In this document: one piece after another, positions 48,971 to 64,000 of the stretch | How positions within the stretch are numbered: position 1 is the stretch's first letter | Layout of the letters: every line of letters starts with the position of its first letter | Assembly: GCA_019448385.1 (NCBI GenBank) | Contig: JAGTXO010000051.1 | Coordinates: 124,001 to 188,000, forward strand | Length of the DNA stretch: 64,000 bases | Direction: 5' to 3' | Source: Diacronema lutheri | Taxonomy: Eukaryota > Haptophyta > Pavlovophyceae > Pavlovales > Pavlovaceae | Made by a program: the position numbers and the translations under genes | The notes under the pieces: generated by a model | What the model was told of the DNA's origin: nothing | Seen by the model: only the letters and a program-made list of their open reading frames with translations | Databases searched by the model: none

Positions 48971-51900
48971 ATGAAGCGGTGTGCGGCGGCGCCGTGCCCC
49001 GGCCCGGGGCACGCGCGCACGCTGGCATGGCTGCATCTGCTACTCGCGCTGCTGCCGGCCTGCTCCGCGCAGCTGCGCATCACCGCCGGCCCGACCGAGC
49101 TTGTCGGGCTCGACATTGCCGCGCCACCGTTTGGATTCTCGCGCGCGCGCTTCGCCGTCGCCGACGCCAAGCTCGTGCTCACCGAGGCGGCGGACTGGTC
49201 GTACGCGGGTGGGCGATGCCCGCCGGCGTACGTTGGCGCGCGCGAGCTGCGCGGCGCCATCCTCGTGCACGCGCACCCGGCGTGGTTGACATGCTCGTTC
49301 GAGGAGCACGCGCGCGGGGCGGCCGATCGGCACGGCGTCGTCGCGTGGGCGCACTGGGCTGACTCGGCGGCGCTACTCGGCACAGTGGCGGGCGCGCACG
49401 CACTCGTGTGGAAGCGGGGCGATGCTCGTCACCTCGCCGCGCCGCCCGCCGTGGACACGGCCTCGCCGCAGCTCGCGCCCATCGTCCGCGCGTTGCGCGC
49501 GGGCGCGGCGCTGCGAGCAAGCCTCGCGCCTTCCACGTCCGAGTGGGCGAGCATGCGCGAGTCGGCGTGGTTCACGTTGTGGCAGGCGGTGTGCGGCATG
49601 CTCGCGCTCGCCACCGCCGAGTTTGCCGCCGCCCACCTCTTCGCCTTCATCCGCGCCGATGGCGGGCCGCGCGCGAGCATTGCGCACGCGATGCTCGTGC
49701 TCGAGGTCGGCGTGAACGCCCTGCGCGCGACGAGCTGCGTCGACGCGTACGGGCAGCGGGCCTGGCTGAGCGTGCACGCGGGATACGCGTTCTCGCTCGG
49801 CGCGCTCACCGCCGCCACCGTCGCGAGCGCCCTCTTCCTCGCGCACTTCGCGCAGGCGGCCTCGCGCTCGGGCGTCGCCTCGTTCCGGCTCACGGTGGCG
49901 TGGGTGCGCCGCGTGCTGCTCGGCATCGGCGCGAGCATGCTCGCACTCTACGCGGCGTTCGCGCTCGCCTTCGCGCTGGTGCCCTCGCCGGCGAGCGTCC
50001 GCACTCGCCTCGTCGCCGAGCCGTGCGTCCACACCATTCTGCCATTGCTCCTCGCCGCACTCGGCGCGCACACCGCGCAGCGCGTCCGCCGCCGGCTGCG
50101 CGGCCTCCCGCCGCCCGTGCTGCGCGCACTGCTCCGGCGGGTGCGGCTGTCGGTGTGGCTGTCCCTCGCGCGCGGCGCGCTCGGCCCGTTCGTTGCGTGG
50201 GGCCTCCAGGGCCCGTGGCGTATGCTGTGCGTGCTGGGCACACACCATATGCTCGCCTACGCGACGACGTGCGCCCAAGTCGGCGCGTTCGCGCCCGTCG
50301 GCACGCGCGTCGTGTACGGCCCGCTGTGCGCAGTGACGAGCGCGTTGATCTGCGGCGCGCGCGCGCTGCTCGGCTCGCTCGCGCCACGCGCGCCCGCTCC
50401 CGCGCATGAGAAGCAAAACGAGCGCAAACTCTCACCGCGCGCCATATCTGGCGGTGTGTGCAGCGGGCGCGGAGGGTTTGCCGTGAGCACGGTGCGAGCG
50501 ACGAGGCTGTCGTCCGCAGGCTCCATTGCGACGCCGGAGCGGCTCGCGCCCGCGCCGGCGCCCGCGCCCGCGCCTGCGCGCTCGCGCTCGCCCGACGGTT
50601 CGCCCATGCTTGCCAAAGCGGCGTCGGACGGCTTGCGCGGGGCGTCGAGCGGAGCGCACCGCGACCCGTCCGCGATGGCGGCGAGGCCGGCGAGCGCAGC
50701 GCGCGGCGCGCGCGGCGACGGCACTCGGTGCGGCAGCGGTGACGGCGCCGCTGCCGCCGCCGCCGACGACGACGTCGACGTCGACGACTCGCGCCTGCTT
50801 CTCGGCGTCTCGCCGGCCTTCCTGCGCGCGTTTGCGGGCGAACACGGGCTCACAACCGGCCAAACGACATACGAGGTGGCAGCCATTGTGCGCGATTTGA
50901 CGCGCAAGGATGGCCGCTCGCTCGCCGAGCTCGCGCTTGCGGCGGCGACCGAGGCCGGCGGCCGGCCAGCGGTGCGGCGCGCGACGCTCTTTGTGACGCA
51001 TGCCCAAGCGTGCTCGTTTTTAAAGCTGGTCGACGCCGTCGAGGCGCACCTCGCGCTGCACGTGCTGGACCCGCGCGAGACGTACTTGTGGATCGACGTG
51101 TTCGCGATCCGGCAGCACCGCGTCGCGGACGACGTGACGCGGATAGCATCGATCGAGCGCGCGATCGGGCGGATCGTCGTCGTGCTCGACCCATGGAACC
51201 AGCCGAAATGCCTCACGCGCATGTGGTGCCTGTGAGCGCGCGCGCGCGCGCGTGCTCGCCCGCCCGCCCGCCCGCCCGTTCTCACCGCGCGCGCTCTTGC
51301 CGGGTGTCACCGGACCGTCCGGACCGCCCGCGCGCGCCAGGTACGAAATCGCCCAGTGCAAGCTCGCGGACGACGAAGCAAGTCGGCGCGCCGGACGCAC
51401 GCCGAGCGGCAGCCCGGCTGGCGCGCGCGCCAGCCGGCCGAGCGGAGGCAAGGTGTCCCTCTCGCTCACGATGGCCGATTCTGAGCGCAAGGCGCTCGTG
51501 CGCGCGCTCGAGGAGCAGAGCGACGCGCTGCTCGCCGTGCAGCACATGTTCGACGTCAGGACCGCCCAGTCGTCGGTCGACTTGGACCGCGTTCGAATCC
51601 TGCAGCACATTCATGCCACATTTCGGAGGGGCACGCCGTCGCTCTCGCGCATGCCGCCGATGCCCGTCCGTGCGAGCCGGCAGGGCGGCGCACAGGGCGC
51701 CGGCGCCGACGGCGGCTGCGCTGGCGGCGCCGCCCTGTCCGTGTCGCTCACCGCGAGGTGCTGCCGTGCGCTCGCGCTGCCAATCGTCAGCGTGGCACGC
51801 GTCGCGCCGCGCATTGCACGCTGCTCCGATGTGGCCTCCGCCGGCGGCCAGGCGGCGTCGCCGGCGGACGCCGCGCCGGCGAGCGCCAGCTGGACCGCTG

Positions 51901-52427
51901 AGCTCAGCAAAGCGCGCGCAGAATGCGCGGCCGTTGCTACGCTCATCGCGCCCGCTCGCGCGCGCGCCTCGGACGAAGAGGCGAGCTTTGACCGCTTCAA
52001 CGCGAGCGTGCGCGAGGAGCTCGGGCGCGCGCTCGCGCTTATGAGCTGGCAGTTGAGCCGGCCTGTGTCGAGTACAGGCGGCCTGGCCGCGCAGCGCTCG
52101 CGCCGACAGCACAACGTGTCGATGAGCTCGACGCGCATCTCCTCCTCTGCCGTCGGCGGCTCGACGACACACCTCTCCTCCGCCGCCGTCGGCACCTGCG
52201 TGACGCCGACGGCGAGCACGAGCCCGTCGATTCCGTCCTCGCCAACAACGTGGGCGAGCGTGCTGCCTAGTCGGCTGCTGACGCCGCTCGGGCGCAGCCG
52301 GTTGGGCGGCGGCTCGCCCGCCCTGGTCGACCGGCGGTGCCCACCCGACGAGCATGTGGCCACCATCACGCCGCTCTCACGCGGCCGCGCGGACCGCAAG
52401 AGGCGCGCGGTCTCGACAACGAGATGA
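48971..52427 (+). CDS. PA-like ectodomain, 7-8 TM receptor with C-terminal WCLYE domain (2 exons)
   Basis: Exons 48971-51231 and 51341-52427 join in phase 2 (TGC CT|G TAC) to give about 1115 residues. A signal peptide (RTLAWLHLLLALLPACSAQL) precedes an ectodomain of about 160 residues with a PA-like pattern (GRCPPAYVGARELRGAILVH, then TCSFEEHARGAADRHGVVAW). Seven to eight hydrophobic helices follow (about 198-475), e.g. YAFSLGALTAATVASALFLA and VLLGIGASMLALYAAFALAF. A Ser/Ala/Pro-rich linker leads to a globular domain with YLWIDVFAIRQHR, IGRIVVVLDPWNQPKCL and TRMWCLYEIAQCK. This W-C-L-Y-E domain is found in many algal and oomycete proteins of unknown function and looks like a TIR/HET-type fold. 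The second exon adds FDVRTAQSSVDLDRVRILQH, a conserved follow-on helix. It likely senses something outside and signals inward; function unknown. Confidence 0.75.
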
Positions 52428-53641
52428 TTCTCCGCAAGTCCGCAGCTGCTGATGGTTTCAACTTTAAACTTTCAATTGCCCGTGCAGTGGGTAAGTACTC
52501 ATTCGTGGAACCGCTACAAAGTCTCAAGCATAGCCGCCAGCGCCCGCGAGCACGGCCACGGCGGCGACGAGGGCGCCGAGCAGCAGCAGCCAGCCTAGCG
52601 ACGAACGCGTGCTCACGACCTGCTACCGTTATCGCTGCCTCGTCCGCACCTGCGCCGCGTCTCCACCTCGGGCGTCGATTCAAGCCGCGAGCCCGTGCGC
52701 TGCGTCGTCGGCGTCGACTGCCCAACGGCGAAGTGGGCGGCGGTGCACCGCGGGAGAGGGTGCGCGCGCGCGTGTGAGCTTCGCGCGCGCGCGTGGCTGG
52801 AGGCGTGCGGACGAACGTCTCGGCGAAGGCGCGAGGCGGGCGGGCCCCGTACGCCGCGTAGGGCGAGCGCGCGAGGCGGGCGGGCCCGAGAGGCCGCGCA
52901 AATACCGTGCCGGCGGTCTGCGCGTCGCAGATCGACCCCGCCTTGGACTGGAGCGCCCCGACGGTGCGCCTGGCGTGCTGCGGCTGGCAGCCGCAGTCCG
53001 TCGTGAGGAACGCGTTGAACTGCGAGGCGTCGCGCCCGAGCTCGAGGAAAAGCCCGAGAAGTTGCACGGCGGACGGTACACTTGCCGCGTCGGACGACGC
53101 GAGCCTCTATACAACCGCCGCGGCGACTTTGCAATGCCGACCTCGCGGAGGACGGGCACCTGCCCTGGCACAATCTCGCCCGTCCAAAAGCGGGCTGCGC
53201 GCAAAGTTCTCGTGGATGGCCGTCGTGCTCCCGTCGGCGCCGCGCGGCGGCGAGCGCGGGTAGACGGGCGTTTCGTCGGTACAAAACTCGATAGACTTGC
53301 TTGCGAGCGCGTGCAGGATGCATGACCTGCACGTACCTGCGAGACCCCGTGGTCGGGGCCGAAAGGCGGACAAGGCTGGTAAACGCGTGCAGGATGACCT
53401 GCACGTACCTGCGAGGCCCCGATGGGGGCCGAGAGGCGTACAAGGCCGGGCGATCGCGCTGGCGCGCGCGGCCGTCGCACCGTTGCTGAATGTCGCAACC
53501 CTGGAGCCAGCGCGTGAACACAGCGGCGTCGCGGTTGAGCGGGCAATAATATTTGCACGAATGGAAGGTGATCGCGCGACGGGCGCTCGTATGGCGAGGG
53601 AGGCACGACAGCCCGCTCCGCGGGCTGCTCGAGCGCTGCGC
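52428..53641. other. Array unit 1 spacer: degenerate sequence with 75-bp repeats
   Basis: No intact gene. Minus-strand fragments that recur in units 1 and 2 include LLGLFLELGRDASQFNAFLT with TTDCGCQPQHARRTVGALQS (about 53055-52930), DETPVYPRSPPRGADG (about 53280-53230) and FTRWLQGCDIQQRCD (about 53515-53470). They are in different frames and probably belong to the decayed retroelement. A 75-bp direct repeat beginning cgtgcaggatgacctgcacg occurs at about 53310-53375 and 53383-53450. The counterpart in unit 2 is 57971-59110. Confidence 0.5.
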
Positions 53642-56190
53642 CTAATGAGAGGCGCGTGCGCGCACCCCATCAGCTGCTGCGCTGAGCGCACGTCTTGGCC
53701 CGCAAGCTTTTGCACGTTTTTCGCCCCGACGCCCGGCACGCCGGCCTGGCACGAGCACCGCGTCCGACAGCGGCTCGCGGAGGAAGCGTCGCTCGGTCTC
53801 GGTCTGCTCTGCCGACATGCGGCCGCGGCGTCGGCGCCGTCGCGCGACGGCTCGGTGGCAGCGCCGGCGCGTGCGCAGCCCGCGCGCAACCCCGACGTCT
53901 GCCGCCGCGGCGACGGCGCGCCGCCGAGGAGCCGCGCGATGATCGGGTGCACCGCGTCCGCGACCGCGCTCGTCGCATCGTGCGGCGCGACCGGCTGCGC
54001 GGATCGCTCGATGTCGAGGTTGGCGAGCACGGAGGCGAGCGCGTCGACGAGCCCTGCGTCGTCGAGCCGCAGCCGCCAGCGTTGCCGCGCCGCTGCGCGC
54101 TCGCCGTGCAGAGGCGAGGCGTGACGAGGCGTGACGAAAGGAGCGAGCGAGAGAGCGCACGCAGCGTCGGTCCGGAGTCAGGGCGACGACCCTGTGCACG
54201 CCGGCAGCGGGGACGGCCGGGACGTCAAGGACGCGGCAGGACGCGGGATGGGCGGACACCCACACACGCCTAGCCAACCCGCGCCGGCCCCCGTCGGCCG
54301 CCGCCGCCGTCGTTGCGCCGGCAGCAGACGCCGTCCACACCGCAGCAGGCGTCCACGTCCGCCTGGACACCGTGAGCGGCGTGGCGGTGCGGCGGCGCCT
54401 GCCCGCGCGCCATCCGCGCACGCGCGAGCAAGAGCTGCGCGTGCCCACGCACGACGCACGCGGCAAGCTGGAGGCGCATGTGCCGCTCGAGCGCCGCCCG
54501 GGCGACGGCCCGCCACGGCGCGCCCATGCGCGCCATCCACGCGTCTGCGCCCATGTGCGAGAAGGTGGCGAGCAGGTCGGCGAGGCCGGCCGACCATTCG
54601 CCAAACGAGCCGATAACCAGCGCGCACATTGGCGCGAACGAGTTGAGGCGCGCCTGCATCGGGCCCACCTGGCCCGGCTGCATGCCGATGAGCTCCTCGT
54701 CGAGCTGGGCGCACGCGCGCCGCCGTTCGCCGCCGAGGCCCCCCGTAGTGGGGCGGTACGAGATCGACTTGAGCTCGCACAGCGTCTACACGAGCTGAGG
54801 GGCCGAGCCCGCACCGCTGAGCACAACGACGAGATCGAGGGTGGGCACGCGCCGACGCCGCAGGGCTGCGCGCCCGGCCGGCGGCACGCCGGCGAGCACG
54901 GAGCCAAAGATGTGGCCGCGTCCTCGCGCTGCGCGTACGTCCCAGCGTATCCGCGAGCGAGCGAGGCGAGCAAGTTGAGAGCGGGCTCGTGGCGAAGCTT
55001 CGCGACCTGGTCGTGGGCGATGCCCGGAGCCGCCGCGAGCGCGTCGCCGTACGCTTCGATCGGGATCGGGCGCTGGCTGCCGCTGCGCGCGAGGCGCGCG
55101 CCCGCCGCCGCGAGCTGCGCCACACGGGGCTCGGCAGACCCAAGTAGCGCGCAACCCTCCGCCGGCAAGAAGGCGGCGTAGGCTCGCGGCAGTGCTTCAA
55201 GAAAGAGGCCGCTCTCTTTGCAAAGACCAAACCAGAGGCCGCGTGGGCGCGAGCCCGGCGGCATGGCGGCGTTGAGCATGTAGAAACGGCAGCGCTCGCG
55301 GTCGCCGGTGATGTCGGCAAAGAGGCTAGGCCGGCGGCCGGCGGCGGGAGCGGCGGGCGCGACGGGGCCCGGCGACAGGCAGAGGACGCGCTCCGCCGTG
55401 TCGCCCTGCCCGCCGCCGAGCTCAGCCTGCATGGCATGCCAGTCGGAGGCGAGCTCGCGCCCCCACCGGCGAAGGCGACGCGCCCGACGCGTGTCACGAG
55501 GGCACGCCAGTCGAGGACGCCCGCCTCCAGGACCGAGCTGTCCGCGGCGCGCGTGTCGAGCAGGTGCGGCAGGGCGAGGCAGGCGGCGCTCCAGAGCAGG
55601 GCGGGCGCGAGGTCAACCTGCTTGCGCAGGCCGGCGCCATGCATCGCGATCGGGAGCGGCAGCCAGCGGCTCGCGATGGCATCCGTCGAGAGGGAGGCAC
55701 CAAGAGCGACGGTAGTCTGCCGGGCGACGATGTCGTCGAAGGCAGCCGAGGCAGGCAGGGAGTCAGACAGGTACGAGTGGGAGATCAAGGAGGAGAAGCG
55801 GAAGATGCGTCGGTCTTGGTCGCGTGTGTCGTGCCCAAGAAGCCTGGAGAGCCCACCGGCACGCCGTAGATGTTGAAGCCATAGTGGAGGGCGCCCGTCG
55901 TCGGATCCGCCACCGAGCCAAGGGGACGGCCCCCCGGCATCCCTCGAGCGTGTCGGCGCTGCGCGGGTCGACCCAGCACGCCGACTTGGCCAGGTTGGCG
56001 TGGAGGCCGAGGCCGGCCAGCGCGCTCTCGAAGCGCGAGAGCGCAGCGCCAACGAGAGCGGGCGGGCACACGGCGTAGACGTCGTCATGACCTGCGCGCG
56101 CGGCCCCACCGACCGCGGCGAGCTCGGCGTCGAGGGGCCACAAGCGCAAGCTGGAAGATACCCATAATACTGCCCTCCTCGTCCGGATGA
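53642..56190 (-). mobile_element. Degenerate non-LTR retrotransposon, array copy 1
   Basis: Minus strand, several frames. From 5' to 3': HDDVYAVCPPALVGAALSRF, a decayed YxDD palm motif with the following AGLGLHANLAKSACW (polymerase motifs C-D, about 56100-56000); GFNIYGVPVGSPGF (motif E-like, about 55870); HSYLSDSLPASAAFDD and LPLPIAMHGAGLRKQVDLAP (about 55800-55600); LPHLLDTRAADSS; and, about 54785 onward, LCELKSISYRPTTGGLGG with MQARLNSFAPMCALVIGSFG, a C-terminal block known from algal LINE-like elements and possibly nuclease-related. Frame changes between blocks show it is dead. The 5' half of the RT and any ORF1 are missing. Confidence 0.75.
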
Positions 56191-56218
56191 GCTTTGTTCA
56201 AGTCGCACAAGGGAACCG

Positions 56219-56232
56219 GCCTTTTAAAGGGG
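56219..56232 (+). promoter_or_regulatory. AT-rich palindrome next to the coiled-coil A start
   Basis: gccttttaaagggg lies 14-27 bp before the ATG; the second copy has ccttaaaaagggg at 61718-61730. In such a GC-rich sequence an exact ccttttaaagg palindrome is notable. It may be an initiator or TATA-like element. Similar ttttaaa motifs occur upstream of the kinase, the CCDC33-like gene and cactin. Confidence 0.4.
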
Positions 56233-56245
56233 GAAAAAGGACGGG

Positions 56246-57970
56246 ATGAGAGTGGTGGCGTTGGCGGCGCTCGCGCTCGCGGGCGCGGTTGCGGTTGAGG
56301 GTTTTGCAGCGCCGCACGCCCGCGAGCGCCGCACGCGCGCAAGTGCTGTGCAGCGACGCACGTCTGCACCTCGCACAAGCCGACCGCTCGCGATGAACGG
56401 CGTCAAGGACATCTTCGATGTCGCGAAAGATTTTGGCATCTACGGCGCGATTGCGACGGCGACGTTCACCTTGTACACGGCCTCTGAGAAAGCGCGCAAA
56501 GAAGACGGGCTGAAGCTGGAGAAGCGCCTCGAGCAGTACGAGGCCACGCGCAAAGAAGACGGGCTGAAGCTGGACAAGCGCCTCGAGCAGTTCGAGGCTG
56601 CGCGCAAAGAAGACCGAGAGCGTTTCGAGGCCACGCGCAAAGAGGATCGGCTCGAGCTGGACAAGCGCTTCGATCGTTTGGACACGCGCTTCGACCGTTT
56701 GGACATGCGTCTCAGCGGCGTCGAGGTGTCGCTCAGCGGCGTCAAGGTGTCGCTGAACTTCCTGCATGGCCGGAACGCTCACACCACGCACAATGCAACC
56801 AATACTGGGCCGTGATCCCCCGCAAGTCACTCTCACTCTTACTGCCACGTTCGTCACGCCATAGCGCCACTCCTGACCGCTGCTACGCTCGTCACGCCTC
56901 AGTCAATGTCCGTGTCCTCCTGACCGCGCGCCAGGTACAAAATCGCCCAGTGCAAGCACGCGGCCGGCGCGCGCGACGGCCGGTCGAGCGGATGCAAGGT
57001 GTCTCCCTCGCCCACAATGGCCGATTCTGAGCGCAAGGCGCTCGTGCGCGCGCTCAGGGAGCAGAGCAACGCGCTGCTCGCCGTGCAGCACATGTTCGAC
57101 GTCAGGACCGCCCAGTCGTCGGTCGACTTGGACCGCGTTCGAATCCTGCAGCACATTCATGCCACCATTCGGAGGGGCACGCCGTCGCTCTCGCGCATGC
57201 CGCCGATGCCCGTCCGTGCGAGCCGGCAGGGCGGCGCACAGGGCGCCGGCGCCGACGGCTGCGCTGGCGGCGCCGCCCTGTCCGTGTCGCTCACCGCGAG
57301 GTGCTGCCGTGCGCTCGCGCTGCCAATCGTCAGCGTGGCACGCGTCGCGCCGCGCATTGCACGCTGCTCCGATGTGGCCTCCGCCGGCGGCCAGGCGGCG
57401 TCGCCGGCGGACGCCGCGCCGGCGAGCGCCAGCTGGACCGCTGAGCTCAGCAAAGCGCGCGCAGAATGCGCGGCCGTTGCTGCGCTCATCGCGCCCGCTC
57501 GTGCGCGCGCCTCGGACGAAGAGGCGAGCTTTGACCGCTTCAACGCGAGCGTGCGCGAGGAGCTCGGGCGCGCGCTCGCGCCTATGAGCTGGCAGTTGAG
57601 CCGGCCTGTGTCGAGTACAGGCGGCCTGGCCGCGCAGCGCTCGCGCCGACAGCACAACGTGTCGATGAGCTCGACGCGCATCTCCTCCTCTGCCGTCGGC
57701 GGCTCGACGACACGCCTCTCCTCCTCCGCCGTCGGCACCTGCGCGACGCCGACGGCGAGCACGAGCCCGTCGATTCCGTCCTCGCCAACAGCGTGGGCGA
57801 GCACGCTACCCAGTCGGCTGCTGACGCCGCTCGGGCGCAGCCGGTTGGGCGGCGGCTCGCCCGCCCTGGTCGACCGGCGGTGCCCGCCCGACGAGCATGT
57901 GGCCACCATCACGCCGCTCTCGCGCGGCCGCGCGGACCGCAAGAGGTGCGCGGTCTCGACAACGAGCTGA
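56246..57970 (+). CDS. Plastid-targeted coiled-coil protein A, possibly spliced to a duplicated WCLYE-gene terminal exon
   Basis: Exon 1 is certain as an open frame (56246-56815, 189 residues). MRVVALAALALAGAVAVEGF then AAPHARERRTRASAVQ is a signal peptide, Phe-Ala-Ala-Pro motif and Arg/Ser transit peptide, the bipartite signal for a complex plastid. Then GIYGAIATATFTLYTASE is a likely membrane helix, followed by heptad-like repeats (ARKEDGLKLEKRLEQYEATR, RKEDRLELDKRFDRLDTRF) and SGVKVSLNFLHG. The stop tga (56813) lies in GGGCC|GTGATC. Splicing there to the acceptor at 56934 gives CC|G TAC, the same phase 2 as in the receptor gene, and opens 345 more residues to 57970. Without splicing the protein ends at 56815. 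GTGATC is a weak donor, so fusion in this copy is less sure than in copy B. A ccttttaaagg palindrome sits 17 bp upstream of the ATG. Confidence 0.6.
56935..57970 (+). other. Second copy of the receptor terminal exon
   Basis: It starts KIAQCKHAAGARDGRSSGCK after the acceptor cgcgccag and reads MADSERKALVRALREQSNAL then FDVRTAQSSVDLDRVRILQH, open to tga at 57968. Compared with the receptor's own exon it lacks about 50 bp near the start and one Gly codon, and has scattered substitutions. No MWCL-coding exon precedes it, so alone it could not rebuild the WCLYE domain. Confidence 0.85.
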
Positions 57971-59110
57971 TTCTCCGCAAGTCCGCAGCATGGATCGTCT
58001 CAACTTTCAATTGCCCGTGCAGTATGTGGGTAGGTACTCATTCGTGGAACCGCTACAAAGTCTCAAGCATAGCCGCCAGCTCGCGCGAGCACGGCCACGG
58101 CGGCGACGAGGGCGCCGAGCAGCAGCAGCCAGCCGAGCGACAAACGCTTGCTCACGACCTGCTACCGTGATCGCTGCCTCGTCCGCACCTGCGCCGCGTC
58201 TCCACCTCGGGCGTCGATTCAAGCCGCGAGCCCGTGCGCTGCGTCGTCGGCGTCGACTGCCCAGCGGCGAAGCGGGCGGCGGTGCACCGCGGGAGAGGAT
58301 GCGCGCGCGCGTGTGAGCTTCGCGCACGCGCGTGGCCGCGAGGCGTGCGGACGAACGTCTCGGCGAAGGCGCGAGGCGGGCGGGCCCCGTACGCCGCACA
58401 GGGCAAATGCGCGAGGCGGGCGGGCCCGAGAGGCCGCGCAAATACCGTGCCGGCGGTCTGCGCGTCCCAGATCGACCCCACCTTGGACTGGAGCGCCCCG
58501 ACGGTGCGCCTGGCGTGCTGCGGCTGGCAGCCGCAGTCCGTCGTGAGGAACGCGTTGAACTGCGAGGCGTCGCGCCCGAGCTCGAGGAAAAGCCCGAGGA
58601 GTTGCACGGCGGACGGTACACTGGCCGCGTCGGACGACGCGAGCCTCTATACAACCGCCGCGGCGACCTTTGCAATGCCGACCTCGCGGAGGACGGGCAC
58701 CTGCCCTGGCACAATCTCGCCCGTCCAAAAGCGGGCTGCGCGCAAAGTTCTCGTGGATGGCCGTCGTGCTCCCGTCGGCGCCGCGCGGCGGCGAGCGCGG
58801 GTAGACGGGCGTTTCGTCAGTACAAAACACGACAGACCTGCTTGCGAGTGCGTGCAGGATGCATGACCTGCACGTACCTGCGAGCCCCCGTGGTGGGGGC
58901 CGAAAGGCGGACAAGGCTGGTAAACGCGTGCAGGATGACCTGCACGTACCTGCGAGGCCCTGACCGGGGCCGAGAGGCGGACAAGGCCGGGCGATCGCGC
59001 TGGCGCGCGCGGCGGTCGCACCGTTGCTGAATGTCGCAACCCTGGAGCCAGCGCGTGAACACAGCGGCGTCGCGGTTGAGCAGGCAATAGTACTTACACG
59101 AATGAAAGGT
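57971..59110. other. Array unit 2 spacer
   Basis: Counterpart of 52428-53641 with the same coding remnants and 75-bp repeats (58850-58990). Near 59100, where unit 1 has a further stretch of about 55 bp (around 53570-53625), unit 2 has a deletion. No intact gene. Confidence 0.6.
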
Positions 59111-61690
59111 GCGCTCCGCGGGCTGCTCGACCGCTGCGCGCAATGAGAGGCGCGTGCGCGCACCCCATCAGCTGCTGCGCTGAGCGCACGTCTTGGCCCG
59201 CAAGCTTTTGCACGTCTTTCCCCCCCGACGCCGGGCACGAAGCCCGGCACGAGCACCGCGTCCGACAGCGGCTCGCGGAGGAAGCGTCGCTCGGTCTTGG
59301 TCTGCTCTGCCGACATGCGGCCGCGGCGTCGGCGCCGTCGCGCGACGGCTCGGTGGCAGCGCCGGCGCGTGCGCAGCCCGCGCGCAACCCCGACGTCTGC
59401 CGCCGCGGCGACGGCGCGCCGCCGAGGAGCCGCGCGATGATCGGGTGCACCGCGTCCGCGACCGCGCTCGTCGCATCGTGCGGCGCGACCGGCTGCGCGG
59501 ATCGCTCGATGTCGAGGTTGGCGAGCACGGAGGCGAGCGCGTCGACGAGCCCTGCGTCGTCGAGCCGCAGCCGCCAGCGTTGCCGCGCCGCTGCGCGCTC
59601 GCCGTGCAGAGGCGAGGCGTGACGAGGCGTGACGAAAGGAGCGAGCGAGAGAGCGCACGCAGCGTCAGTCCGGAGTCAGGGCGACGACCCTGTGCACGCC
59701 GGCAGCGGGGACGGCCGGGACGTCAAGGACGCGGCAGGACGCGGGATGGGCGGACACCCACACACGCCTAGCCAACCCGCGCCGGCCCCCGTCGGCCGCC
59801 GCCGCCGTCGTTGCGCCGGCAGCAGACGCCGTCCACACCGCCGCAGGCGTCCACGTCCGCCTGGACGCCGTGAGCGGCGTGGCGGTGCGGCGGCGCCTGC
59901 CCGCGCGCCATCCGCGCACGCGCGAGCAGGAGCTGCGCGTGCCCACGCACGACGCACGCGGCAAGCTGGAGGCGCATGTGCTGCTCGAGCGCCGCCCGGG
60001 CGACGGCACGCGAGGGCGCGCCCATGCGCGCCATCCACGCGTCTGCGCCCATGTGCGAGAAGGTGGCGAGCAGGTCGGCGAGGCCGGCCGACCATTCGCC
60101 AAACGAGCCGATAACTAGCGCGCACATTGGCGCGAACGAATTGAGGCGCGCCTGCATCGGGCCCATCTGGCCCGGCTGCATGCCGATGAGCTCCTCGTCG
60201 AGCTGGGCGCACGCGCGCCGCCGTTCGCCGCCGAGGCCCCCCGTAGTGGGGCGGTACGAGATCGACTTGAGCTCGCACAGCGTCTACACGAGCTGAGGGG
60301 CCGAGCCCGCACCGCTGAGCACAACGACGAGATCGACGGTGGGCACGCGCCGACGCCGCAGGGCTGCGCGCCCGGCCGGCGGCACGCCGGCGAGCACGGA
60401 GCCAAAGATGCGGCCGCGTCCTCGCGCTGCGCGTACGTCCCAGCGTATCCGCGAGCGAGCGAGGCGAGCAAGTTGAGAGCGGGCTCGTGGCGAAGCTTCG
60501 CGACGTGGTCGTGGGCGACGCCCGGAGCCGCCGCGAGCGCGTCGCCGTACGCTTCGACCGGGATCGGGCGCTGGCTGCCGCTGCGCGCGAGGCGCGCGCC
60601 CGCCGCCGCGAGCTGCGCGCACACGGGGCTCGGCAGACCCAAGTAGCGCGCAACCCTCCGCCGGCAAGAAGGCGGCGTAGGCTCGCGGCAGTGCTTCAAG
60701 GAAGAGGCCGCTCTCCAAACCAGAGGCCGCGTGGGCGCGAGCCCGGCGGCATGGCGGCGTGCTCAGCGTTGAGCATGTAGAAACGGCAGCGCTCGCGGTC
60801 GCCGGTGATGTCGGCGAAGAGGCTAGGCCGGCGGCCGGCGGCGGGAGCGGCGGGCGCGACGGAGCCCGGCGACAGGCAGAGGACGCGCACCGCCGTGTCG
60901 CCCTGCCCGCCGCCGAGCTCAGCCTGCACGGCGTGCCAGTCGGAGGCGAGCTCGCGCCCCCACCGGCGAAGGCGCCGCGCCCGACGCGTGTCACGAGGGC
61001 ACGCCGGTCGAGGACGCCCGCCTCCAGGACCGAGCTGTCCGCGGCGCGCGTGTCGAGCAGGTGCGGCAGGGCGAGGCAGGCGGCGCTCCAGAGCAGGGCG
61101 GGCGCGAGGTCAACCTGCTTGCGCAGGCCGGCGCCATGCATCGCGATCGAGAGCGGCGGCCAGCGGCTCGCGATGGCATCCGTCGAGAGGGAGGCACCAA
61201 GAGCGACGGTAGTCTGCCGGGCGACGATGTCGTCGAAGGCAGCCGAGGCAGGCAGGGAGTCCGACAGGTACGAGTGGGAGATCAAGGAGGAGAAGCGGAA
61301 GATGCGTCGGTCTTGGTCGCGTGTGTCGTGCCCAAGAAGCCTGGCGAGCCCACCGGCACGCCGTAGATGTTGAAGCCATAGTGGAAAGCGCCCGTCGTCG
61401 GATCCGCCACCGAGCCAAGGGGACGGCCCCCCGGCATCCCTCGAGCGTGTCGGCGCTGCGCGGGTCGACCCAGCACGCCGACTTGGCCAGGTTGGCGTGG
61501 AGGCCGAGGCCGGCCAGCGCGCTCTCGAAGCGCGAGAGCGCAGCGCCGACGAGAGCGGGCGGGCACACGGCGTAGACGTCGTCATGACCTGCGCGCGCGG
61601 TCCCACCGACCGCGGCGAGCTCGGCGTCGACAGGCCACAAGCGCGGGCTGGAAGGTACCCATAATACTGACCTCGTCGTCCGGATGAGCT
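59110..61690 (-). mobile_element. Degenerate non-LTR retrotransposon, array copy 2
   Basis: Same blocks, order and frame changes as copy 1: HDDVYAVCPPALVGAALSRF (about 61595), GFNIYGVPVGSPGF (about 61375), HSYLSDSLPASAAFDD, MHGAGLRKQVDLAP, and ELKSISYRPTTGGLGG with MQARLNSFAPMCALVIGSFG (about 60270-60100). Shared frameshifts mean that the element decayed before the segment was duplicated. A few indels separate the copies (for example about 12 bp near 60715). Confidence 0.75.
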
Positions 61691-61741
61691 TTGTTCAAGC
61701 CGCACCAGGGAACCGGCCTTAAAAAGGGGAGAAAGGAAGGG

Positions 61742-63172
61742 ATGAGAGTGGTGGCGTTGGCGGCGCTCGCGCTCGCGGGCGCGGTGGCGGTTGAGGGTTT
61801 CGCAGCGCCGCACGCCCGCGAGCGGCGCACGCGCGCAAGTGCTGTGCAGCGACGCACGTCTGCACCTCGCACAAGCCGACCGCTCGCGATGAACGGCGTC
61901 AAGGACATCTTCGATGTCGCGAAAGATTTTGGCATTTACGGCGCGATTGCGACGGCGACGTTCACCTTGTACACGGCCTCTGAGAAAGCGCGCAAGGAAG
62001 ACCGGCTGATGCTCGACATCCGCTTCGAGCACCTCGACGCCACGCGCAAAGAAGACCGAGAGCGTTTCGAGGCCACGCGCAAAGAGGACCGGCTCGAGCT
62101 GGACAAGCGCTTCGATCGTTTGGACACGCGCCTCGACCGTTTGGACACGCGCCTCGACCGTTTGGACACGCGTCTCAGCGGCGTCGAGGTGTCGCTCAGC
62201 GGCGTCAAGGTGTCGCTGAACTTCCTGCATGGCCGGAACGCTCACACCACGCACAATGGAACCAATACTGGGCCGTGAGCAAGTCACTCTCACTGCCACG
62301 TTCGTCACGCCATAGCGCCACTCCTGACCGCTGCTACGCTCGTCACGCCTCAGTCAATGTCCGTGTCCTCCTGACCGCGCGCCAGGTACAAAATCGCCCA
62401 GTGCAAGCTCGCGGACGACGAAGCAAGTCGGCGCGCCGGACGCACGCCGAGCGGCAGACCGGCCGGCGCGCGCGACGGCCGGTCGAGCGGATGCAAGGTG
62501 TCTCCCTCGCCCACGATGGCCGATTCTGAGCGCAAGGCGCTCGTGCGCGCGCTCGGGGAGCAGAGCAACGCGCTGCTCGCCGAGCAGCAAACGTTTGACG
62601 CCAGGACCGCCCAGTCGTCGGTCGACATGGGCCGCGTTCGAATCCTGCAGCACATTCATGCCACCATTCGGAGGGGCACGCCGTCGCTCTCGCGCATGCC
62701 GCCGATGCCCGTCCGTGCGAGCCGGCAGGGCGGCGCACAGGGCGCCGGCGCCGACGGCTGCGCTGGCGGCGCCGCCCTGTCCGTGTCGCTCACCGCGAGG
62801 TGCTGCCGTGCGCTCGCGCTGCCAATCGTCAGCGTGGCACGCGTCGCGCCGCGCGTTGCACGCTGCTCCGATGTGGCTTCCGCCGGCGGCCAGGCGGCGT
62901 CGCCGGCGGACGCCGCGCCGGCGAGCGCCAGCTGGACCGCTGAGCTCAGCAAAGCGCGCGCAGAATGCGCGGCCGTTGCTGCGCTCATCGCGCCCGCTCG
63001 CGCGCGCGCCTCGGACGAAGAGGCGAGCTTTGACCGCTTCAACGCGAGCGTGCGCGAGGAGCTCGGGCGCGCGCTCGCGCTCATGAGCTGGCAGTTGAGC
63101 CGGCCTGTGTCGAGTACAGGCGGCCTGGCCGCGCAGCGCTCGCGCCGACAGCACAACGTGTCGATGAGCTAA
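61742..63172 (+). CDS. Plastid-targeted coiled-coil protein B, probably spliced to a third terminal-exon copy
   Basis: Exon 1 (61742-62278, 178 residues) repeats the signal peptide, Phe-Ala-Ala-Pro transit motif and membrane helix of protein A, but its coiled coil differs: RKEDRLMLDIRFEHLDATRK replaces longer KLEKRLEQ units and RLDRLDT occurs more often. Its stop tga (62276) lies in GGGCC|GTGAGC, the same hexamer as the receptor donor (CT|GTGAGC). The possible intron 62275-62385 is 111 bp (109 bp in the receptor) and joins as CC|G TAC in phase 2. The joined frame would run to taa at 63170, where cgatgagctaaaagcgc replaces the cgatgagctcgacgcgc of copies 1 and 2, cutting the tail by about 90 residues. 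Unspliced, the protein ends at 62278. Confidence 0.6.
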
Positions 63173-63472
63173 AAGCGCATCTCCTCCTCTGCCGTCGGCG
63201 GCTCGACGACACGCCTCTCCTCCTCCGCCGTCGGCACCTGCGCGACGCCGACGGCGAGCACGAGCCCGTCGATTCCGTCCTCGCCAACAGCGTGGGCGAG
63301 CGTGCTGCCCTGTCGGCTGCTGACGCCGCTCGGGCGTAGCCGGTTGGGCGGTGGCTCGCCCGCCCTGGTCGGCCAGCTCTGCACGCCCGACGAGCATGTG
63401 GCCACCATCACGCCGCTCTCGCGCGGCCGCGCGGACCGCAAGAGGCGCGCGGTCTCGACAACGAGCTGATTC
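62386..63472 (+). other. Third copy of the receptor terminal exon, with early stop
   Basis: It retains the start region of copy 1 (KLADDEASRRAGRTPSG) that copy 2 lost. Frame open to taa at 63170-63172; the homologous sequence continues to 63472 beyond the stop. Also notable is the change of VQHMFDV to EQQTFDA. Confidence 0.85.
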
Positions 63473-64000
63473 TCCGCAAGTCCGCAGCATGCTGATGGTG
63501 AAAACTTTCAATTGCCTGTAGGTTCTCATTCATGGGACCGCTACAAAGACTTTCAAGGATAGCCGCCAGCGCGCGCGAGCACGGCCACGGCCGAGCAGCA
63601 GCAGCCAGCCGAGCGACGAACGCGTGCTTGCGACCTGCGTCACGACTGCTGCCTCGTCCGCACCTGCGCCGCGTACGGCGCTCTCCACCTTGGGCGATTC
63701 AAGCCGCGAGCCCGTGCGCTGCGTCGTCGGCGTCGACTGCCCAGCGGCGAAGTGGGCGGCGGTGCACCGCGGGCGAGGGTGAGCGCGCGCGTGTGAGCTT
63801 CGCGCGCGCGCGTGGCCGCGAGGCGTGCGGACGAACGTCTCGGCGAAGGCGCGAGGCGGGCGGGCCCCGTACGCCGCGCAGGGCGAGCGCGCGAGGCGGG
63901 CGGGCCCGAGAGGCCGCGCAAATACCGTGCCGGCGGTCTGCGCGTCGCAGATCGACCCCGCCTTGGACTGGAGCGCCTCGACGGTGCGCCTGGCGTGCTG
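63473..64000. other. Start of array unit 3 spacer
   Basis: Homologous to 52428-52980 and 57971-58520, with small deletions near 63590 and 63680. It runs off the window, so a third retroelement copy and perhaps more units are expected beyond. Confidence 0.75.

What the first reader, a model, noticed from the sequence alone, without database searches (positions are those of the whole stretch)
51341..63172. Terminal-exon sharing: one 3' exon in three copies, each placed behind a different first exon
The last exon of the 7TM-WCLYE gene occurs at 51341, 56935 and 62386. Homology begins exactly at the 3' splice site. Ahead of copies 2 and 3 lies a plastid-targeted coiled-coil exon whose stop sits inside CC|GTGA, in the same phase 2 as the receptor's CT|GTGA. 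The receptor's own exon 1 also shows a false tga at its donor. Splicing would make proteins with different N-termini and one common tail, a modular locus built by tandem duplication.
Basis: partly seen in the sequence, partly recalled or inferred. Interest (0 to 1): 0.9.

Follow-up and report, generated by a model that had tools for sequence, protein, structure and literature searches.

The report
Decaying exon copies in tandem array
In an alga, a stretch holding the end of a receptor-like gene, a piece of a jumping gene and a small coiled-coil gene has been copied head to tail, and the repeated receptor end-pieces look like decaying passengers rather than a shared working module.

Summary
The repeats are real: the receptor-like gene's last exon recurs at 56935 and 62386. 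They belong to a larger array of eight exon copies on contig C10, five of them beyond the window. The host is very probably Diacronema lutheri. What repeats is not an exon but a unit of 3.5-6.0 kb: exon 2, a frame-shifted reverse-transcriptase-like fragment, a coiled-coil gene and a 107-119 bp spacer. Shared sequence begins 10 bp inside the intron.

Change in exon copies 2-8 is close to neutral (53 nonsynonymous, 31 synonymous, 1 stop; p 0.065). Copies 3, 6 and 7 are broken by a stop or frameshifts. Each of the seven extra copies has lost one to four residues invariant among five family members. In the same units the first 85 codons of the coil gene are strongly constrained (11 synonymous, 1 nonsynonymous, 1 stop; p 4.5e-5). 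The coil 'donor' is weak, and any stop TGA preceded by G puts a GT in phase 2.

Best reading: an array of coiled-coil genes carrying 5'-truncated, decaying receptor fragments. No RNA data were available, so chimeric transcripts are unlikely but not excluded.

The parts
48971..51231 (+).
   Evidence: Open frame; SHAQ...IRQ...DPW...WC block shared with paralogs
51232..51340 (+). Receptor intron, 109 bp, 83.5% GC, phase 2 donor CT|GTGAGC
   Evidence: Paralogs on C47 and C72 read WCLFE and WCLYE without an intron; lengths and GC
51341..52427 (+). Exon 2, copy 1 (361 codons, stop 52425-52427), the copy that belongs to the receptor-like gene
   Evidence: keeps 12 of 12 family-invariant residues of this part
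51331..56924 (+). First repeat unit; homology starts at 51331 in the last 10 bp of the intron
   Evidence: BLAST of the region against itself; alignment
52900..56160 (-). Reverse-transcriptase-like fragment, frame-shifted, inside unit 1
   Evidence: A 128-aa open piece has 117 matches at E <= 0.01 in the genome; a related copy on C76 gives RVT_1 at E 3.5e-4, 20.8 bits, below the curated cut-off of 29.6; pieces matching that copy lie in different frames. Edges approximate
56246..56815 (+). Coiled-coil gene copy 1 (189 aa, stop TGA)
   Evidence: constraint in first 85 codons
56816..56934 (+). Spacer 1 (119 bp) between coil stop and exon 2 copy 2; the proposed intron would be 56812-56934
   Evidence: Alignment of seven spacers; length
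56935..57970 (+). Exon 2, copy 2 (344 codons, 48 bp lost near the start, open)
   Evidence: E89K, L127P, L129P at family-invariant positions
61742..62278 (+). Coiled-coil gene copy 2 (178 aa, stop TGA)
62279..62385 (+). Spacer 2 (107 bp)
62386..63172 (+). Exon 2, copy 3, ended by a premature TAA at 63170-63172 (261 codons); homology continues past it

Best explanation
This is a tandem array of a 3.5-6.0 kb unit made of a 5'-truncated receptor fragment (exon 2), a frame-shifted reverse-transcriptase-like fragment, a coiled-coil gene and its 3' flank. The left breakpoint fell in the GC-rich last 10 bp of the receptor intron, so the copies seem to begin at the splice site. The unit was then multiplied to eight exon copies and seven coil copies, presumably by unequal exchange (inferred). 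Only copy 1 of the exon serves the receptor-like gene. Copies 2-8 are passengers drifting almost freely, most likely flank or 3' untranslated sequence of the coil genes (inferred). The coil genes end at their own TGA (inferred from sequence; no RNA) and are what selection keeps; that their product goes to the plastid is inferred from the N-terminus alone.
For: Eight exon and seven coil copies in one direction on C10. Homology runs through exon, downstream stretch, coil and spacer. Exon copies 2-8: 53 nonsynonymous, 31 synonymous, 1 stop against a neutral expectation of 28% synonymous (p 0.065); the four open ones 45 and 21 (p 0.31). Coil first 85 codons: 11 synonymous, 1 nonsynonymous, 1 stop (p 4.5e-5); summed over copy pairs 94 synonymous and 6 nonsynonymous differences; the two genes differ (Fisher p 0.0017). 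Copies 3, 6 and 7 broken in the proposed frame. Family-invariant residues kept of 12: copy 1 twelve, copy 2 nine, copies 3-7 eight, copy 8 eleven. The junction lies inside a conserved block, so exon 2 is half a domain.
Against: Four of seven extra exon copies (2, 4, 5, 8) are still open, and three of them (2, 4, 5) follow an open coil copy and would give joined frames of 533, 567 and 596 codons. The true frame has slightly more synonymous changes (31) than the five wrong ones (19-29), so weak constraint is not ruled out. The acceptor core and the coil GTGA are kept in all seven units. The coil repeats and C-terminus could not be tested cleanly. Counts ignore tree and gene conversion.
Confidence: 0.88

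Rival explanations
1. Terminal-exon sharing as proposed: each coil exon is spliced at CC|GTGA to the following exon 2 copy, giving proteins with different N-termini and one common tail.
For: GT and AG are present in matching phase in all seven units. The joined frame stays open to the end of the tail in units with coil copies 1, 3 and 4 (533, 567, 596 codons). Spacers are 63-66% C+T, the receptor intron 60% (two spacers measured).
Against: Near-neutral change in the tails, breaks in copies 3, 6, 7, lost invariant residues. Donors score 1.6 bits (six copies) and 3.3 (copy 2), reached by 40% and 27% of 4,793 GTs; acceptors 1.4-3.1, reached by 22% and 14% of 5,790 AGs; the receptor's own sites score 6.1 and 3.9. 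In leave-one-out, 19 of 20 and 13 of 20 reference donors, and 16 of 20 reference acceptors, score higher.
Confidence: 0.06
2. Exon copies 2-8 are small genes of their own, read from an internal ATG (MADSERKAL...) rather than as spliced tails.
For: The internal ATG is in frame with the tail in the open copies, and copies 6 and 7, whose frameshifts lie before it, have open frames over the rest of the tail.
Against: The same near-neutral pattern; L127P or L129P/R just before it and D169G after it; copy 3 has a stop. No promoter evidence was sought.
Confidence: 0.03
3. The whole unit, coil genes included, is inert repeat DNA.
For: One coil copy (the seventh) has a stop at codon 37, and the unit carries a fragment of a dispersed element.
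Against: Six of seven coil copies are open, their lengths (178-305 aa) differ mainly by in-frame repeats, and the first 85 codons are constrained.
Confidence: 0.03

Closest known systems
Partial gene duplicates, including those in tandem arrays (review by Katju 2012, PMC3449122; passages seen)
   Same: A duplication breakpoint inside a gene copies only part of it, and the piece lands beside foreign sequence; the review lists a partial duplication in tandem array (eelpout AFPIII).
   Different: Here the truncated piece shows no sign of a new function, and it is repeated together with a second gene that is the constrained part.
Partial or chimeric duplicates with recruitment of flanking sequence (same review)
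   Different: No evidence of a joined product; the coil has its own stop and the tail decays.
Loci with variable first exons and constant 3' exons, such as protocadherin or UGT1 clusters (recalled, not searched)
   Same: Superficial layout of different 5' parts before a common tail.
   Different: Those use a single set of 3' exons; here the 3' part is itself repeated and decaying.

Membership tests
Partial gene duplicate in a tandem array | Breakpoint inside the gene, so that the copies lack part of it | tested here: met
   Copies share only the last 10 bp of the intron and nothing of exon 1
Partial gene duplicate in a tandem array | Head-to-tail copies at one place | tested here: met
   Eight exon copies, one strand, C10:175341 to about 211658
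Partial gene duplicate in a tandem array | Longer paralog is ancestral, shown with an outgroup species | tested here: inconclusive
   Paralogs in the same genome have both halves of the domain; no other species' locus was available
Shared terminal exon (alternative first exons) | Transcripts that join different first exons to the common exon | not testable with these tools
   No RNA data held
Shared terminal exon (alternative first exons) | Protein constraint on the shared exon copies | tested here: not met
   53 nonsynonymous, 31 synonymous, 1 stop in copies 2-8, p 0.065 against neutral; lost invariant residues
Shared terminal exon (alternative first exons) | Open joined frame in each unit | tested here: not met
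   Full length in 3 of 7 joined units; cut short in four by a tail stop, tail frameshifts or a coil stop
HET domain (PF06985), for the receptor's cytosolic part | Match above the curated Pfam score | tested here: not met
   E 0.16-0.18, 12.6-12.8 bits, cut-off 22.5; no PDB match to the profile. A resemblance of WCLYE to TIR domains is recalled, not tested
Reverse transcriptase (RVT_1), for the minus-strand fragment | Match above the curated Pfam score | tested here: not met
   Open frames of the window fragment: no match. Related copy on C76: E 3.5e-4, 20.8 bits, cut-off 29.6

The most novel reading that the evidence does not exclude
Some units (coil copies 1, 3 and 4 with exon copies 2, 4 and 5) do make chimeric proteins in which the receptor-derived tail is an almost unconstrained C-terminal extension, so that a possibly plastid-targeted coiled-coil family is in the act of gaining a new tail.
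Probability: 0.05. Interest if true: 0.55.

Novelty: new member of a known kind. Interest (0 to 1): 0.2.

Why it matters
It shows how a tandem array can imitate a modular exon-sharing locus: a stop of the form G|TGA and a breakpoint near a splice site give a matching phase almost for free. Comparing selection on the two coding stretches carried in the same unit separates the kept gene from its passenger. The part worth following is the coiled-coil family, whose tandem copies differ mainly by in-frame repeats while their N-terminal part is held constant.

Tried and rejected
Exon-specific copying, for example through a retrocopy: rejected, because homology includes 10 bp of intron and kilobases downstream.

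A coil gene elsewhere that could show a spliced form: besides C10 the searches found only a partial copy on C50 (both list best candidates only) and one chance-level match on C47 (E 0.75). The C50 copy seems internally deleted and frame-shifted and diverges from the coil DNA before the coil stop, with no spacer or exon 2 match. It says nothing on splicing.

Naming the receptor domain: Pfam gave nothing for the exons scanned apart, weak HET with the exons joined; the PDB gave nothing.

A splice model was built from 20 introns inferred in three chaperonin and three kinesin genes, six stretches out of the many matches listed. It is small and some introns in it are doubtful; it serves only as a rough scale.

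Literature: three searches (listings with starts of abstracts, 10, 10 and 8 rows shown of 41, 35 and 181 papers) and passages of PMC8379373 and PMC3449122. What I saw names no description of this locus; no search was made for the locus itself.
Full report
What the window is. The window is C10:124001-188000 of a genome of 43,492,796 bases in 103 contigs. Size, contig number and GC fit the published assembly of the haptophyte Diacronema lutheri NIVA-4/92 (43.503 Mb, 103 contigs, 73.25% GC; PMC8379373, passages seen; window GC). The identification is an inference from these numbers.

Observation. Exon 2 of the receptor-like gene starts at 51341 and recurs at 56935 and 62386. A search of the genome finds eight copies, all on C10 in one direction. 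In coordinates extended from the window the further acceptors are at 68059, 71533, 77516, 81203 and 86581. The coil gene has seven copies, one before each extra exon copy. Self-comparison shows long head-to-tail homologies, for example 51415-58920 against 56961-64392 (93.7%) and 59088-63850 against 64674-69546 (95.8%). The seven full units, cut between acceptors, are 5594, 5451, 5673, 3474, 5983, 3687 and 5378 bp. Homology ends near extended position 89050 (C10:213050), inside the reverse-transcriptase-like fragment. So what is repeated is a unit of several kilobases, not an exon.

The left edge. Copies share with the receptor intron only CGCGCGCCAG, its last 10 bp (BLAST start 51331; alignment). 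That intron is 83.5% GC. A breakpoint there makes homology seem to begin at the splice site. Microhomology as the cause is inference.

What exon 2 is. Paralogs on C47 and C72 read WCLFE and WCLYE through the junction without an intron, which supports the receptor intron. Three paralogs on C9 and those on C32 and C6 appear to have an intron near the same place. A five-member alignment has 36 invariant columns, 24 before the junction and 12 after it, with W85-C86 before and E89 after. Exon 2 is therefore the second half of a conserved domain plus a C-terminal tail. The domain has no accepted Pfam name: HET is hit only at E 0.16-0.18, below its cut-off, and no PDB chain matches the profile.

Selection. 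The mutation spectrum was taken from 292 two-state changes in 3,584 columns between exon 2 and the coil gene. It predicts 28% synonymous changes for exon 2. Exon copies 2-8 show 53 nonsynonymous, 31 synonymous and 1 stop (one-sided p 0.065); the four open copies 2, 4, 5 and 8 show 45 and 21 (p 0.31). Pairwise dN/dS over all 28 pairs runs from 0.45 (copies 6 and 7) to 1.65 (copies 1 and 4); copies 1 and 2 give 0.92, 1 and 3 give 0.94, 2 and 3 give 0.79. Counted in the five wrong frames the same changes give 19-29 synonymous against 31 in the true frame, so a little constraint is not excluded. The first 85 codons of the coil gene, over all seven copies, show 11 synonymous, 1 nonsynonymous and 1 stop where 29% synonymous is expected (p 4.5e-5); summed over pairs, 94 synonymous and 6 nonsynonymous differences. 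The two genes differ (Fisher p 0.0017). These counts use variable columns without a tree or a model of gene conversion. The coil repeats and C-terminus were not tested cleanly, because repeat-number differences break their alignment.

Decay. Copy 3 has a premature TAA. Copies 6 and 7 share a 1-bp deletion, and copy 7 has an 8-bp insertion as well. Copies 2, 4, 5 and 8 are open. Of the 12 invariant positions in exon 2, copy 1 keeps 12, copy 2 keeps 9 (E89K, L127P, L129P), copies 3-7 keep 8 (these three and D169G, with L129R in copies 6 and 7), and copy 8 keeps 11 (D169G) (for copies 6 and 7 in the register of copy 1). Six of seven coil copies are open, 178-305 aa long; the seventh has a stop at codon 37.

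Splice signals. A rough model from 20 inferred introns gives the receptor donor 6.1 bits and its acceptor 3.9. The coil GTGA scores 1.6 in six copies and 3.3 in copy 1 (the one before exon copy 2), and the following acceptors 1.4-3.1. Of 4,793 GTs in this 107 kb, 40% reach 1.6 and 27% reach 3.3; of 5,790 AGs, 22% reach 1.4 and 14% reach 3.1. In leave-one-out, 19 of 20 reference donors beat 1.6, 13 of 20 beat 3.3, and 16 of 20 reference acceptors beat 3.1. A TGA preceded by G necessarily offers a GT in phase 2, and 16 of 68 open frames of at least 400 codons end that way (many of these frames need not be genes). The phase agreement is a modest coincidence. The model is small, so splicing is judged unlikely, not excluded. 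If it did occur, the joined frame would be full length in three of seven units (533, 567 and 596 codons).

How it most likely works. Shown: the unit, the copy numbers, constraint on the coil N-terminal part, near-neutral change and partial disablement of the exon copies. Inferred: multiplication by unequal exchange; coil transcripts ending after the TGA; exon copies as flank or 3' untranslated sequence; the coil protein going to the plastid. Two short units and the right edge inside the element fragment show that the history had further steps.

The element fragment. A 128-aa open piece at 55763-56149 (minus strand) has 117 matches at E <= 0.01 in the genome, some of them two pieces of one place, with surrounding open frames up to 1,533 aa. 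A related copy on C76 matches RVT_1 weakly. It was only described.

Comparison. The array fits partial gene duplication in tandem (PMC3449122, passages seen). That review also warns that partial duplicates can gain functions, so weak constraint now does not settle their future.

Verdict. Real repeats; tandem duplication right; a shared, functional terminal exon not supported. Interest 0.2.

Noticed in passing
56246-56815, 61742-62278 and five more coil copies on C10 (extended 67328, 70715, 76658, 80171, 85973): A tandem family of coiled-coil genes, six of seven open, 178-305 aa, differing largely by 87-bp (29-aa) in-frame repeats while the N-terminal 85 codons hardly change.
   Followed up: partly
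55763-56149 (minus strand) and matches over many contigs: The unit carries a fragment of a dispersed reverse-transcriptase-like element; 117 matches at E <= 0.01, some in open frames over 1,000 aa.
   Followed up: partly
Extended 68049-71520 and 77506-81190 (units 4 and 6): Two non-adjacent short units appear to share a deletion of about 2.4 kb (unit 1 positions about 52830-55257), which points to a higher-order duplication or conversion within the array.
   Followed up: no
L043, L045, L046 (C9:2252676-2260976): Three closely similar paralogs of the receptor domain within 9 kb, one on the plus and two on the minus strand, two of them about 1 kb apart in opposite orientation.
   Followed up: no
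L029 1440-1660 (C50:340512-340688): A partial coil copy outside the array, seemingly frame-shifted and internally deleted, after a long G run.
   Followed up: partly
L013 about 4087 onward (C10:215687 on): Downstream of the array lies a frame that reads like a leucine-rich-repeat (ANP32-like) protein; the name is recalled from the sequence and was not searched.
   Followed up: no
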